A stretch of DNA of 64,000 nucleotides from Planctomycetota bacterium (GTDB lineage: Bacteria > Planctomycetota > JAJSAM01). How positions within the stretch are numbered: the first letter of the stretch is position 1; each line of letters begins with the position of its first letter. The stretch is from NCBI GenBank assembly GCA_024274785.1, contig JAJSAM010000027.1:40376-104375 (forward strand), read 5' to 3'. This document shows, in pieces, positions 15,563 through 20,072 of this stretch. The notes below the pieces were generated by a model, which was not told the origin of the DNA, ran no database searches, and saw nothing but the letters and a program-made list of their open reading frames with translations. Both the position numbers and the translations under genes were made by a program.

Positions 15563-16016
15563 CTACGCCCATCTCTTGCCGGCCACGCCCGACCAGGGGA
15601 GGATCTGCGTGTTCCGGCGACGGTGGCGGCTGTCGCCCCCGTACACGAGGTACCTCTCGAATTCGTACCCTTCGATGCGGGCCGTCACTTTCTCCTCGAG
15701 GAGGTCCAGACCCCGGAAGAAGGATCGGTTTACCGTCCGGCCCGCCTTGATCTCCAGCGCCGGGATCCGGTTCCCCCGCTCGATGATCAGGTCCACTTCC
15801 GTCTTCAGGTGCTCCCCGATCGAAGAGAGCGGGGAACCCACCGGGGAACATCGCCTGGTCCAGGTTCTCCGGCGGATCGGGAAATCGCCGTAATTCGTCC
15901 AGGCTGCAAGGCAGCAGGTGGAACATGGCGGTGCGGCCGGCGATAGACTGCGAGATCGTGTCCATGAGGGCGAAGTGGGTCGACCCTCCATTGCGGCAGG
16001 GCCGCGCTGTGTTCAA
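15563..16016 (-). pseudogene. AAA+ ATPase / DUF4143 protein remnant
   Basis: Two frames: NGGSTHFALMDTISQSIAGRTAMFHLLPCSLDELRRF...FPGGFPALFDR and EVDLIIERGNRIPALEIKAGRTVNRSFFRGLDLLEEK; middle of the family missing. Confidence 0.7.
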
Positions 16017-16041: not shown

Positions 16042-16923
16042 TCAGCTTCGCCGGAACACCGCGCAAACCACCGGCGGCCCTTCGCGATGCCGGTCGGACG
16101 GTAGCGCCTTCGCGGTCACCCGGAGGATCTCCCGGCGCGGGCCGAGGGCGTACTCCTCGCGGGCGACGACTTCTTTCTTCGTGAGCGATGCGCGGTACAC
16201 CGCGGATGTCTCCGGGACCGACTTGCCGGCCGGGAAGAGGAAGGGGAAGCCCGGCCCCTTGAAGACCCTTCGCACCCGGTAGGTGACCTGGCGCCGAGGA
16301 TCGCTCCCGCGGTCGCTCGGGCGTGCGGCGAAATCGAACAGTCCGGCGGCGGCGGGGCCTTCCTCGGTTTCGAGGAGGCGCAGTGAGGCGGCTTCGAGGG
16401 AGGCGCGGTAGGCGTCGGCCAGGGTGAAGATCGTCTCCGGGTGAAAACCCTGGCGCTCGCGGAGTTTCGTGAGATCGGCCGAGGGCATCATGAGTTCCGC
16501 AGCGCCCAGATCGCAGGCCCGCTCGAGTTCCCGGGCTTCTTCGGTGGCGTAGACCTCCCGGCAGGTGGTGCGGAACTGGTACTCGCCCTCGCGCTCAAAG
16601 ACCAGGTGTGCCAGCTCGTGGGCGATGGAGAAGGCGACGCGCGCCCGGGAGCGGATCCTGCTGTTGACGCCGATAATCGGTCGGCCGGCGATTTCGAAGA
16701 GAAGCGCATCCCAATCCACCCGCTCGGTGGTGGTTCGCTTGACCGGTACCCCGATGGCTCTCGCACAGCGCTCCGGGTCGTAGGGCGGTGGGTTGAAACC
16801 GGGGTCGACCTCCCTCACCGTTTTGATGAGGTGTTGGATGCGGGACGTGGCCAGGCCGCGCGCCTCGTCCGGATTCCCGGCGGGGAAAGGCACCGCGTCT
16901 TCGATCCAGGGGTGGTTCTGCAC
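16042..16923 (-). CDS. ImmA/IrrE-family metallo-endopeptidase
   Basis: FSIAHELAHLVFERE zinc-protease motif; directly downstream of the XRE gene. Confidence 0.88.
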   Translation of the reverse strand: MQNHPWIEDAVPFPAGNPDEARGLATSRIQHLIKTVREVDPGFNPPPYDPERCARAIGVPVKRTTTERVDWDALLFEIAGRPIIGVNSRIRSRARVAFSIAHELAHLVFEREGEYQFRTTCREVYATEEARELERACDLGAAELMMPSADLTKLRERQGFHPETIFTLADAYRASLEAASLRLLETEEGPAAAGLFDFAARPSDRGSDPRRQVTYRVRRVFKGPGFPFLFPAGKSVPETSAVYRASLTKKEVVAREEYALGPRREILRVTAKALPSDRHREGPPVVCAVFRRS

Positions 16924-16933
16924 GTCGTCGTTC

Positions 16934-17344
16934 CTATTCGATCACTCGCTTGATGAACTCATACAGCAGCTCGAAGTCCTTGTCCGTCTTCGGCGGGGTG
17001 CCCCGGTACTGGATCCCCGTCAGCATGTCCACGTCATCCTCGGTGAGCGGCTCGCCGGCACGCTTCTTCCGGGCCGCGAACCTCTTCAAACCGTCCGGCA
17101 GGGGGACTTTTCTCCGGTCCCTCTTCGGGTTTTCTCCGAGGAGATCGGCGACCGGCACCTCGAGCCCGGCGGCCAGTTTGCGCACCGCTTCGACCGAGGG
17201 ATTGTTGGCCTCACCCCGCTCGAGCTGGGAGAGGTAGCCCTTGCTCACCTCGCAGCGCCTCGCCAGTTCCCCGAGTCCCAGACCGCGGTCGGTGCGCAGT
17301 CGGTGCAGCCGCTGCCCCAGGCTTACTCGCTCGTCGTTGGTCAA
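16934..17344 (-). CDS. XRE-family HTH transcriptional regulator (probable TTG start)
   Basis: LGQRLHRLRTDRGLGLGELARRCEVSKGYLSQLERGEANNPSVEAVRKLAAGLEV; GGGAGGA Shine-Dalgarno 6 nt before TTG at 17344. Confidence 0.88.
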   Translation of the reverse strand: MTNDERVSLGQRLHRLRTDRGLGLGELARRCEVSKGYLSQLERGEANNPSVEAVRKLAAGLEVPVADLLGENPKRDRRKVPLPDGLKRFAARKKRAGEPLTEDDVDMLTGIQYRGTPPKTDKDFELLYEFIKRVIE

Positions 17345-17466
17345 GAGGTGTCCTCCCGATGTTCTCCACACCATACGGTTGTTTTTTGTGGGAAACAAGG
17401 CTCTTGACAGGGTGTTCTCTGTCGAATACGGTGTTTGCTGTAGAGAACAGAGCGGGTGGGCGAGTC
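17345..17466. promoter_or_regulatory. divergent promoter with duplicated operator
   Basis: + strand TTGACA (17404-17409)/17 bp/TACGGT (17427-17432); - strand TTGTTT (17398-17393)/17 bp/TATGGT (17375-17370); direct repeats at 17373-17400 and 17426-17453. Confidence 0.6.
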
Positions 17467-19041
17467 ATGGAAATCAGAAACCAGCGGATCGAGATCAGGG
17501 TGGGGAACGTCGAAATGCGGCTTTGCGGGCCGGTTCCGCGGCAGCTACTCGACCGGGAGTTGAACCCTCATCTCCCCGCCTGGCAACCGGAGACGGGTAC
17601 GCCCATGGCACGGGTCTATGAGCCCGAGAACGCCACGGTGCTGACCGGCGCACTCAGCAAGTTGAAGCGCGTGCTGCGCGGCGCCGGGGTGCTGTATCAC
17701 CTGAAGGACGTGCGCTCCGCGGGTCGGCCCTGCGTCAACTTCCACTTCTTCGGTCCGGTTCTGCGCCCCTACCAGGAGGACGTGATCGACGTGGCGCTCC
17801 GCATCGGGCACGGGATCATCGACATCGGCACCGGTGGGGGGAAAACGCTGCTTGCCGCGGCGATCACCGCCATGTTGCGCCGGCCGACGCTCTACGTGGT
17901 GACGACCCGCACCCTCCTGCATCAGACGCGGGAAAACCTGGGCACGTTCCTTGGCATCACACCGGGGGAAGTGGGGGACGGGCGTCGGACGATCTCGACC
18001 GTCACCGTGGCCCTCGCGCAGAGTCTCACCGGGGGAGATGTGGACCTGACGCCGTTTGAGGGGGGCACGCTGGTGTGGGACGAAGGCCATCACGCTGCCG
18101 CGCAGAGCTGGCAGAGCCTGATCCGCCGCATTGCCCCCCGCTACCACTACTACCTGTCCGCGGTGCCTTATCGGAATGGAGGGGACCAGGTGGTGCTCGA
18201 CGCCCTGGCGGGGCCACGACTCACCGGGGGGGCCTACTCCGCCCGGTTCCTGATCGAGCGGGGCTTTGCCTGTCCGGTCGAGGTCCGGGTGGAGACGTGC
18301 CGTATTGAAGCGGAGATGCGGGAGCGGACGTTCGCCACGCTGTACCGGGAGTTCATCGTCGGTAACCGGGAGCGGAACGGGATCATCTCGAGTCTTGTCC
18401 GCGAGCAGGTCGGGGAGGGCCGGTCGGTGCTGGTGCTGGTGGATCACGTCCGCCATGGTGAGTTGCTTCAGAAGGGGATCGGCAGCCGCTCCGAGTTTGT
18501 CTGCGGCGCTACGGGGACAAGGCGCTTGACGAACCAGGTGAAGCGGTTTGCCGAGGGGAGGCTTCCGTGTCTCATCGCCACGTCCGCATTGTTCCAGGAG
18601 GGCGTTTCGATCGACGGGATCGAGGTGCTCGTGCAGGCCGGGGGGCTCAAGTCGAGGAGCAAGGTCATCCAGGCGATCGGCCGGGGCATGCGGAAGGCAA
18701 AGGGCAAGGACTCCTGCCTGTACGTGGATTTCCTGGACGACGACGAGTCCGGGTACCTGCGTGGTCACTCCCTCGAGCGCCTGCGTGTGCTGAAGGAGGA
18801 GGGATTCGATGTCCCGTCGGTTTCGCGGCCCCGGCTCGACCTGGGGAGTGGAGAGGCGGTGCCTCCGGTGTGGTCCCACGTTGCCGGGAGCAACCGATTC
18901 GTGCTGATGGGGTCCGACGGAAGGGTGCGAAAACGGGCGGTCTGCCTCGACCGGCGCCCCGTCCCCGCCCGCTATTGCGAGAAGTGCAGGAACCGAAGAC
19001 CGTGCCAGGAAGGAGGGACGATCACATGGCAAGAAGGATAG
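17467..19041 (+). CDS. phage-like SF2 DEAD/DEAH helicase (UvsW/COG1061-like) with C-terminal Cys cluster
   Basis: GTGGGKT Walker A, VWDEGHHAA motif II, QAIGRGMRKAKGK motif VI, C-terminal CEKCRNRRPC. Confidence 0.85.
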   Translation: MEIRNQRIEIRVGNVEMRLCGPVPRQLLDRELNPHLPAWQPETGTPMARVYEPENATVLTGALSKLKRVLRGAGVLYHLKDVRSAGRPCVNFHFFGPVLRPYQEDVIDVALRIGHGIIDIGTGGGKTLLAAAITAMLRRPTLYVVTTRTLLHQTRENLGTFLGITPGEVGDGRRTISTVTVALAQSLTGGDVDLTPFEGGTLVWDEGHHAAAQSWQSLIRRIAPRYHYYLSAVPYRNGGDQVVLDALAGPRLTGGAYSARFLIERGFACPVEVRVETCRIEAEMRERTFATLYREFIVGNRERNGIISSLVREQVGEGRSVLVLVDHVRHGELLQKGIGSRSEFVCGATGTRRLTNQVKRFAEGRLPCLIATSALFQEGVSIDGIEVLVQAGGLKSRSKVIQAIGRGMRKAKGKDSCLYVDFLDDDESGYLRGHSLERLRVLKEEGFDVPSVSRPRLDLGSGEAVPPVWSHVAGSNRFVLMGSDGRVRKRAVCLDRRPVPARYCEKCRNRRPCQEGGTITWQEG

Positions 19042-20072
19042 GCCTGCGAAAGACGCCGCTCACCCAGGTGGAGGGGATGCTCCGGAAACACCGCACCAAC
19101 CTGGAGGACCGTTACCTGCCGCTCTCGCAGATCCGGCTCGAGATCGGCGACGCGCCTGGACCGACGGAGGGCCGCTACTGGATCCGGTTCGTAACCGACG
19201 ACAAGAAGAGGCGGTACACGCTGACCGTGAACTCCCTGCGCCAACTCTGCGCCATGGCCGGAATCCCCCTGCAGTTCATGGACCGCGTACCTCCGGCGAT
19301 GGGGCTCCGGCTGTTGCGGGGGATGCTCGAGGCGGTCCGGGGCGAGGACAGTAAGCCCTTGCTCTTCCGCCTGCGCGTGGGCAGGCAGTCGAGGGTCCGG
19401 GCGATTCTGCCGCAGAGTCACGTGCGCCTTTCGGACCTCGATGTGCTGAGCTCTGTCCGGGACGCCGTGCAGCGCCTTTCCGCCACCGCCATTCGCGTCT
19501 CCATCACCGAGGACATCTTCTTCCTGCGGCTCATCTTCAGCGAGGGCCTGAACGTCGGAACGCAGAGTGTGCCCGACGATTGCCAGGGCGGCTTCGATGT
19601 GATCTCGAGCGAGACCGGACGCCACTCCCTGGAGATGCGCCACGTGCTGTTCCGGGTGATCTGCGGCAATGGCATGACGGTGGACACCCGGCGCGATCAG
19701 ACGATGCGGACGCGCTACACCCGGATGGATCGGGATGTCTTCAAGAGTACGTTTGAGGAGGCCCTTACCGGTTCCCTGACCGAGGTGCGCCGCCTGGCCG
19801 GACTGATGGCGGATACCCGCAGCACCTACATCGCGGACCCGGACCAGGAGATGCGCGATATCTTCGCGCGCTTCGACCTGGGCAGCCCCCGCGGTCGCCT
19901 GTTCCAGTTTGTCAACCAGGAGGTCCGTCAGATGAACACGCTCTTCGGGGTGAGTCGCTTCGACCTGGTGCAGGGTTTCACCGCGACGGCGAGGGACCTG
20001 GAGTACCGGGACCGTATGCGGCTGGAGGACGCGATGGGGGAGTACCTGCTTTCGCCGGTGGCGGCGAACTGA
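19026..20072 (+). CDS. DUF932-like phage/plasmid-type protein
   Basis: FDVISSETGRHSLEMRHVLFRVICGNGM resembles the DUF932 core; overlaps the helicase 3' end by 16 nt. Confidence 0.6.
   Translation: MARRIGLRKTPLTQVEGMLRKHRTNLEDRYLPLSQIRLEIGDAPGPTEGRYWIRFVTDDKKRRYTLTVNSLRQLCAMAGIPLQFMDRVPPAMGLRLLRGMLEAVRGEDSKPLLFRLRVGRQSRVRAILPQSHVRLSDLDVLSSVRDAVQRLSATAIRVSITEDIFFLRLIFSEGLNVGTQSVPDDCQGGFDVISSETGRHSLEMRHVLFRVICGNGMTVDTRRDQTMRTRYTRMDRDVFKSTFEEALTGSLTEVRRLAGLMADTRSTYIADPDQEMRDIFARFDLGSPRGRLFQFVNQEVRQMNTLFGVSRFDLVQGFTATARDLEYRDRMRLEDAMGEYLLSPVAAN

What the first reader, a model, noticed from the sequence alone, without database searches (positions are those of the whole stretch)
16042..20072. XRE/ImmA-controlled two-gene module: phage-like SF2 helicase plus DUF932-like protein
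XRE regulator and ImmA/IrrE protease (10-bp gap) diverge from a helicase whose 3' end overlaps a DUF932-like gene. The order mirrors the immR-immA repressor/anti-repressor-protease switch of ICEBs1 and related phages, but no integrase, capsid or conjugation gene is nearby; instead the switch controls a helicase with a C-terminal Cys cluster and a phage/plasmid-type DUF932 protein. This could be a domesticated phage replication fragment or a stand-alone damage-inducible defence/recombination module.
Basis: partly seen in the sequence, partly recalled or inferred. Interest (0 to 1): 0.72.

Follow-up and report, generated by a model that had tools for sequence, protein, structure and literature searches.

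The report
Damage-switched helicase and DUF932 gene module
A four-gene chromosomal cassette, found in three distantly related bacteria, pairs a repressor and protease of the kind that senses single-stranded DNA with a DNA-repair-type helicase and a phage-family protein of unknown function; it looks like a small stand-alone emergency DNA-handling or defence switch.

Summary
A CapH/DdrO-like repressor and a CapP/PprI-like M78 peptidase (10-bp gap) diverge from an XPB/UvsW/RadD-type SF2 helicase that overlaps a DUF932/phrog_1362 protein by 16 nt. The repressor aligns with DdrO over its full length and keeps the Arg-Gly of the cleavage site. The peptidase aligns with PprI through the GAF-like domain and keeps HEXXH and two of three ssDNA-binding arginines. 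The same gene order recurs in two other genomes, in two other families of the phylum (helicase 50-53%, DUF932 about 42% identical), with the same overlap and a similar row of 16-bp operator-like palindromes. In 392 genomes of the phylum only these three carry the helicase. Viral-contig scans found no close copy. The flanks are housekeeping genes, and this M78 gene is the only one found in the genome. So it is a stand-alone accessory module, not a prophage or ICE fragment. Most likely ssDNA activates the protease, the repressor is cleaved, and the helicase and its partner are made to process DNA. Whether the purpose is repair or anti-phage defence is unresolved. The switch type is known; I found no description of this pairing. 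New variant of a known kind.

The parts
16042..16923 (-). CapP/PprI(IrrE)-like M78 metallopeptidase, 293 aa: peptidase (H101-E102-L-A-H105), HTH and GAF-like C-terminal region; presumed ssDNA-activated protease
   Evidence: Peptidase_M78 5.4e-15; PADLOC capP 4.8e-26; PDB PprI 8slm 8.7e-8 aligned 82-258 to 76-249, IrrE 2.3e-6, CapP 7t5t 7e-6; only M78 gene found in genome
16934..17344 (-). CapH/DdrO-like HTH repressor, 136 aa, with DdrO-type C-terminal domain and cleavage-site region GIQ-Y-R-G
   Evidence: PADLOC capH 9.8e-16; DdrO 6jq1 1.6e-15 over residues 7-135 of 136
17361..17376 (.). operator-like palindrome (GTTY-N8-RAAC, 1 mismatch), repressor-gene side
17381..17396 (.). operator-like palindrome GTTTTTTGTGGGAAAC, exact, overlapping the putative -35 of the repressor gene
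   Evidence: counterpart exact in L166 and L169
17404..17432 (+). putative helicase promoter TTGACA-17 nt-TACGGT
   Evidence: read from the sequence; TTGA-type -35 and 17-nt spacing also in L166 and L169; not picked up by the generic promoter scan
17414..17429 (.). operator-like palindrome GTTCTCTGTCGAATAC (1 mismatch) inside the -35/-10 spacer
   Evidence: counterpart in L169 at the same spacing
17433..17448 (.). operator-like palindrome GTTTGCTGTAGAGAAC, exact, just downstream of the -10
   Evidence: exact counterparts in L166 and L169
17467..19041 (+). SF2 helicase of the XPB/UvsW/RadD group, 524 aa, with N-terminal extension and C-terminal four-Cys cluster (C493, C504, C507, C513)
   Evidence: ResIII 7.6e-15; phrog_16 DNA helicase 3e-60; PDB profile XPBII 1e-25, UvsW 4e-16, RadD 1e-14; Foldseek XPB/UvsW/RadD; 50-53% identical homologues
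19026..20072 (+). DUF932/phrog_1362-family protein, 348 aa, start overlaps helicase end by 16 nt
   Evidence: phrog_1362 2.6e-21; Pfam DUF932 sub-threshold; AlphaFold model pLDDT 79.7, no convincing PDB fold, BFVD DUF932 matches

Best explanation
A stand-alone accessory module that is switched on when single-stranded DNA accumulates. Shown by sequence: four genes, divergent, with operator-like palindromes over both putative promoters, conserved as a unit in three families. Inferred from homology: in the resting cell the DdrO/CapH-type repressor sits on the palindromes and silences the helicase-DUF932 operon and its own gene. ssDNA from damage, stalled forks or invading DNA binds the PprI/CapP-type protease, which cuts the repressor in its C-terminal domain at the Y-R-G site, so it leaves the DNA. 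Inferred more weakly: the XPB/UvsW/RadD-type helicase then remodels branched or unwound DNA together with the DUF932 protein, a phage recombination-module protein whose biochemistry is unknown. I favour processing of DNA-damage and replication intermediates as the direct activity, in an element distributed like accessory stress or defence genes.
For: Gene order conserved in 3 genomes of 3 families at helicase 50-53%, DUF932 41-43%, CapH 40-43% identity. Helicase-DUF932 overlap present in all three. Palindrome row at matching spacings (20/33/19 bp in the window; 21/33/20 in L169); none of 5000 shuffles reached the observed total. The extended operator motif occurs exactly only twice in the genome, both here, with no 1-mismatch site. 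Repressor: full-length DdrO match with conserved Arg-Gly of the cleavage site; DdrO with R118A was not cleaved even with ssDNA (PMC10904395). Protease: HEXXH, plus R94 and R217 aligned to PprI Arg85 and Arg207, two of the three residues whose joint loss abolishes ssDNA binding. Helicase nearest to repair helicases XPB, UvsW and RadD. DUF932 relatives lie near PD-(D/E)XK exonuclease genes in 15 of 38 loci, and in a phage early region with RecT and SSB.
Against: No experiment. ssDNA sensing is inferred; the third PprI arginine (Arg267) lies beyond the alignment, and zinc/redox signalling is an alternative trigger for IrrE (PMC7907104). The helicase is the only one of the two products with a predicted activity. 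The two other copies sit on 4.9- and 3.2-kb contigs of fragmented genomes, so their context, and all or part of their protease gene, is missing. The operator motif was found on the same sequences it was tested on.
Confidence: 0.5

Rival explanations
1. Anti-phage defence system. The same ssDNA-triggered switch, as for CapH/CapP beside CBASS, turns on a helicase plus DUF932 effector that acts on replicating or recombining phage DNA.
For: PADLOC's best models for the regulators are capH and capP. Patchy distribution: 3 of 392 genomes, absent from the other 8 genomes of the order. An AbiEi-like antitoxin gene lies about 0.7 kb downstream in L166, sub-threshold. DUF932 relatives of the phylum sit beside DISARM, type I and III R-M and a PDC-S37 kinase-helicase in hand-picked loci.
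Against: No PADLOC model for a defence system is a convincing match for helicase or DUF932. No nuclease or toxic domain is recognised. The defence neighbours of DUF932 were chosen by eye, without a control. The genes annotated around the window locus are housekeeping genes, not a defence island.
Confidence: 0.3
2. Remnant of a phage or ICE early region (immR-immA plus replication genes), kept by chance.
For: DUF932 and UvsW-type helicases are phage families. A Faecalibacterium phage has a metallopeptidase gene and a small gene diverging from an early operon with DUF932, RecT and SSB.
Against: Flanks are housekeeping genes. Frames are open in three copies about 50% identical, and third codon positions differ most. 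No viral contig found carries the pair.
Confidence: 0.1
3. The switch is real but answers zinc or redox stress rather than ssDNA, so the module is a general stress cassette.
For: IrrE is also activated by zinc shock and oxidants (PMC7907104). Rubrerythrin and desulfoferrodoxin genes flank the module.
Against: A DNA helicase payload fits DNA damage better. Two PprI ssDNA-contact arginines are conserved.
Confidence: 0.1

Closest known systems
Deinococcus PprI(IrrE)-DdrO
   Same: Full-length repressor match including the cleaved C-terminal domain (Arg-Gly of the cleavage site kept); peptidase with HEXXH, HTH and GAF-like region; two of three ssDNA-contact arginines aligned.
   Different: PprI-DdrO runs a genome-wide repair regulon; here the genes are adjacent and the extended operator motif occurs only at this locus.
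CapH-CapP regulators of CBASS and other immune operons
   Same: Adjacent repressor and protease pair next to the operon they control; best PADLOC hits; CapP solved structure matched at 7e-6.
   Different: The payload is a helicase and DUF932, not CBASS, Bub or another listed immune operon.
ImmR-ImmA of ICEBs1 and phages
   Same: Repressor and M78 protease next to a divergent operon.
   Different: No integrase or conjugation gene among the flanking genes annotated; the repressor and protease align with DdrO and PprI over nearly their whole length.
XPB / T4 UvsW / RadD helicases (phrog_16)
   Same: SF2 core; profile E 1e-25 to 1e-14.
   Different: Own N-terminal extension and C-terminal four-Cys cluster, both modelled with low confidence; at most 34% identity to listed phage homologues.
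DUF932 / phrog_1362
   Same: Whole-length profile match and matching predicted fold.
   Different: Its own branch: the NSEVG motif of most relatives reads SSETG, TSQTG or TSETG in the three module copies, and its neighbour is a helicase instead of an exonuclease.

Membership tests
PprI-DdrO / CapP-CapH type switch | M78 peptidase with HEXXH | tested here: met
   HELAH at 101-105; Peptidase_M78 5e-15
PprI-DdrO / CapP-CapH type switch | HTH and GAF-like C-terminal region on the protease | tested here: met
   Alignment to PprI spans residues 82-258 of 293; by sequence only
PprI-DdrO / CapP-CapH type switch | ssDNA-binding arginine patch (PprI Arg85, Arg207, Arg267) | tested here: inconclusive
   R94 and R217 align with Arg85 and Arg207; Arg267 lies beyond the alignment
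PprI-DdrO / CapP-CapH type switch | Repressor with cleavable C-terminal domain | tested here: met
   DdrO match over residues 7-135; Arg-Gly of the cleavage site conserved; cleavage itself not testable here
PprI-DdrO / CapP-CapH type switch | ssDNA-stimulated cleavage of the repressor | not testable with these tools
   needs purified proteins
Deinococcus radiation/desiccation regulon (PprI-DdrO) | Operator shared by many repair genes | tested here: not met
   Extended 20-bp motif: exact or 1-mismatch sites only at this locus in the genome; the shorter GTTY-N8-RAAC motif was not scanned genome-wide
CBASS-associated CapH-CapP | Next to a CBASS or other known immune operon | tested here: not met
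   Divergent operon is helicase-DUF932; no convincing PADLOC match
ICEBs1-type immR-immA on a mobile element | Integrase, conjugation or virion genes nearby | tested here: not met
   ORFs annotated between 10.2 and 30.7 kb are housekeeping or unassigned; the rest of the window was not scanned by family
XPB/UvsW/RadD SF2 helicase | SF2 motor with family-specific similarity | tested here: met
   below NCBIfam equivalog cut-offs for XPB and RadD, so no orthologue claim
DUF932 | Score over Pfam's gathering cut-off | tested here: not met
   19.0 of 23 bits; phrog_1362 2.6e-21 and the fold match place it as a distant relative

The most novel reading that the evidence does not exclude
An undescribed two-protein DNA-processing system (XPB/UvsW-type helicase with Cys cluster plus DUF932 partner) with its own ssDNA-sensing switch, which protects cells against phage or lethal DNA damage. 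It would be a first function for a DUF932 protein, as far as I could find.
Probability: 0.35. Interest if true: 0.72.

Novelty: new variant of a known kind. Interest (0 to 1): 0.52.

Why it matters
The ssDNA-activated protease/repressor switch is known to guard repair regulons and immune operons. Here it appears to guard a compact two-protein payload for which I found no description, conserved at about 50% identity across families and outside phages. The DUF932 family is common in phages and mobile elements without a known function; a four-gene, self-regulated unit makes that function directly testable.

Tried and rejected
(1) DUF932 as a Rad52/RecT-like annealing protein: rejected as a claim, because the model has no convincing PDB match (best E 0.055, probability 0.06; RAD52 only at E 0.83) and a phage carries both DUF932 and RecT. 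(2) 'Helicase and DUF932 are not co-conserved': this looked true in the first searches but was overturned when a wider draw of genomes and the class of the second host were searched. (3) The helicase-like neighbours of other DUF932 genes: those checked were SNF2, R-M or DISARM helicases, not this family. (4) The helicase near DUF932 in viral locus L134 was set aside as another type from its sequence start and weaker score. (5) A scan of genome contigs with single-protein patterns found only distant SF2 helicases. (6) The generic sigma-70 scan found no promoter; the promoters given rest on three-way comparison.
Full report
Observation. The four genes exist as described. Borders: repressor 17344-16934 (-), protease 16923-16042 (-), helicase 17467-19041 (+), DUF932-like 19026-20072 (+). 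The repressor-protease gap is 10 bp and the helicase-DUF932 overlap is 16 nt. The longest helicase ORF start, at 17359, lies in the regulatory region; the homologues begin near 17467.

Regulators. PADLOC's best models are capP (4.8e-26) and capH (9.8e-16). Against solved structures the repressor matches DdrO over residues 7-135 of 136 (1.6e-15), including the C-terminal domain that PprI cuts. DdrO of D. deserti is cut between L106 and R107 (PMC7907104); the window reads Y-R-G there. [quoted passage not shown] The protease matches PprI, IrrE and CapP (8.7e-8, 2.3e-6, 7.2e-6). Its alignment to PprI runs through the GAF-like domain; HEXXH is present, and R94 and R217 align with PprI Arg85 and Arg207 (numbering fixed on His92/Glu93/His96). 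It is the only M78 peptidase found in the genome. CapH+CapP are described as controllers of adjacent immune operons, with CapP activated by ssDNA (PMC13373217). So the switch works like PprI-DdrO and CapP-CapH; cleavage itself is inferred.

Operators. The intergenic region holds palindromes of the form GTTY-N8-RAAC at 17361, 17381, 17414 and 17433 (two exact, two with one mismatch). L169 has four at 21/33/20-bp spacing (window 20/33/19); L166 has two exact ones, 54 bp apart (52 and 53 bp between their counterparts in the window and L169). Ten sites in three regions against a shuffled mean of 0.74; none of 5000 shuffles reached ten. The motif was defined on these sequences, so the count overstates the case; the matching spacing is the stronger point. 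A TTGA-type -35 with 17-nt spacing to TACNNN, and a palindrome in the spacer (imperfect in L166), is visible in all three. The extended motif TGTTCTCN6ATACGGT occurs exactly twice in 4.5 Mb, both here, with no 1-mismatch copy. This fits a dedicated local switch, not a regulon.

Payload. The helicase is nearest to XPB (1e-25), UvsW (4e-16) and RadD (1e-14) by profile, to phrog_16 (3e-60), and to the same group by Foldseek. The model is confident only in the motor (pLDDT 69.9 overall; ends mostly below 50). Four cysteines at the C-terminus are invariant in three homologues. The DUF932-like protein is sub-threshold for Pfam DUF932 but a full-length phrog_1362 match. Its model (pLDDT 79.7) has no convincing PDB counterpart and matches DUF932 phage proteins. 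Relatives of this family (37 loci of the phylum and one Bacillus-group plasmid) have a PD-(D/E)XK exonuclease gene within 6.5 kb in 15 of 38 loci and a clamp-like gene in 10 of 38. In Faecalibacterium phage Roos the gene lies in an early region with RecT, SSB and a DnaD-like loader, beside a metallopeptidase gene. In the best-scoring non-module locus, L039, DUF932 directly follows an XRE-like gene and an M78 gene.

Conservation. First searches suggested the pair was unique. A wider draw with the protease as query found L166 (G319) with all four genes in the same order, and the class of that genome gave L169 (G313) with repressor, helicase and DUF932. Identities to the window: helicase 50-53%, DUF932 41-43%, repressor 40-43%, protease 39% over the 84 aa present. 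Third codon positions differ most, as expected for genes under selection. In 392 genomes of the phylum only these three have the helicase at E<=1e-60; none of the other eight genomes of the order has it. Viral-contig scans by conserved peptides gave only distant SF2 helicases (29% over the longest match), none with DUF932 or the protease in reach. In the window the flanks are TypA, rubrerythrin, ketosynthases, desulfoferrodoxin and an M90 peptidase.

Limits. The two other copies lie on 4.9- and 3.2-kb contigs of fragmented genomes (80% complete each), so binning errors and missing context are possible. The collections searched are samples, and the viral scans depend on short conserved peptides. 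No name could be given to the phylum. The original CapH-CapP paper is not held; statements on it come from papers that cite it.

Verdict. A conserved, stand-alone, probably ssDNA-inducible helicase-DUF932 module; known switch type, payload for which I found no description. Repair versus defence is open; I lean to DNA-intermediate processing (0.5) over dedicated defence (0.3).

Noticed in passing
L042, L044, L045, L047, L048, L050, L052, L054, L056, L081: In this phylum DUF932/phrog_1362 genes recur with a PDDEXK_1 exonuclease, a small 'ASYG..YSSE' protein and, in part, a DnaN-like protein (weak phrog processivity-factor match); several copies per genome in one family.
   Followed up: partly
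L041, L047, L050, L052, L057: DUF932 relatives beside strong defence genes: PDC-S37 kinase-helicase, type I R-M, DISARM DrmA/DrmB, type III R-M, DrmMI; loci picked by eye, no control.
   Followed up: partly
L039:6186-10126: Co-directional XRE-like, M78 peptidase, DUF932 and PDDEXK genes: a second, independent link between an M78 switch and DUF932.
   Followed up: partly
L163:8133-9409: Another CapH/CapP-like pair (capH 8.7e-34, capP 3.5e-22) without helicase or DUF932; neighbours are a coiled-coil gene with a sub-threshold DUF2325 match and a metallo-beta-lactamase-fold gene.
   Followed up: no
L166:4251-4868: AbiEi-like antitoxin gene (sub-threshold) downstream of the module in the second genome.
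   Followed up: no
window 15563-15991 (-): Possible C-terminal remnant of a DUF4143 ATPase gene next to the protease gene (E 0.07, weak).
   Followed up: no
L061:5872-8281: Pontibacillus megaplasmid: DUF932 gene next to a dnaN gene.
   Followed up: no
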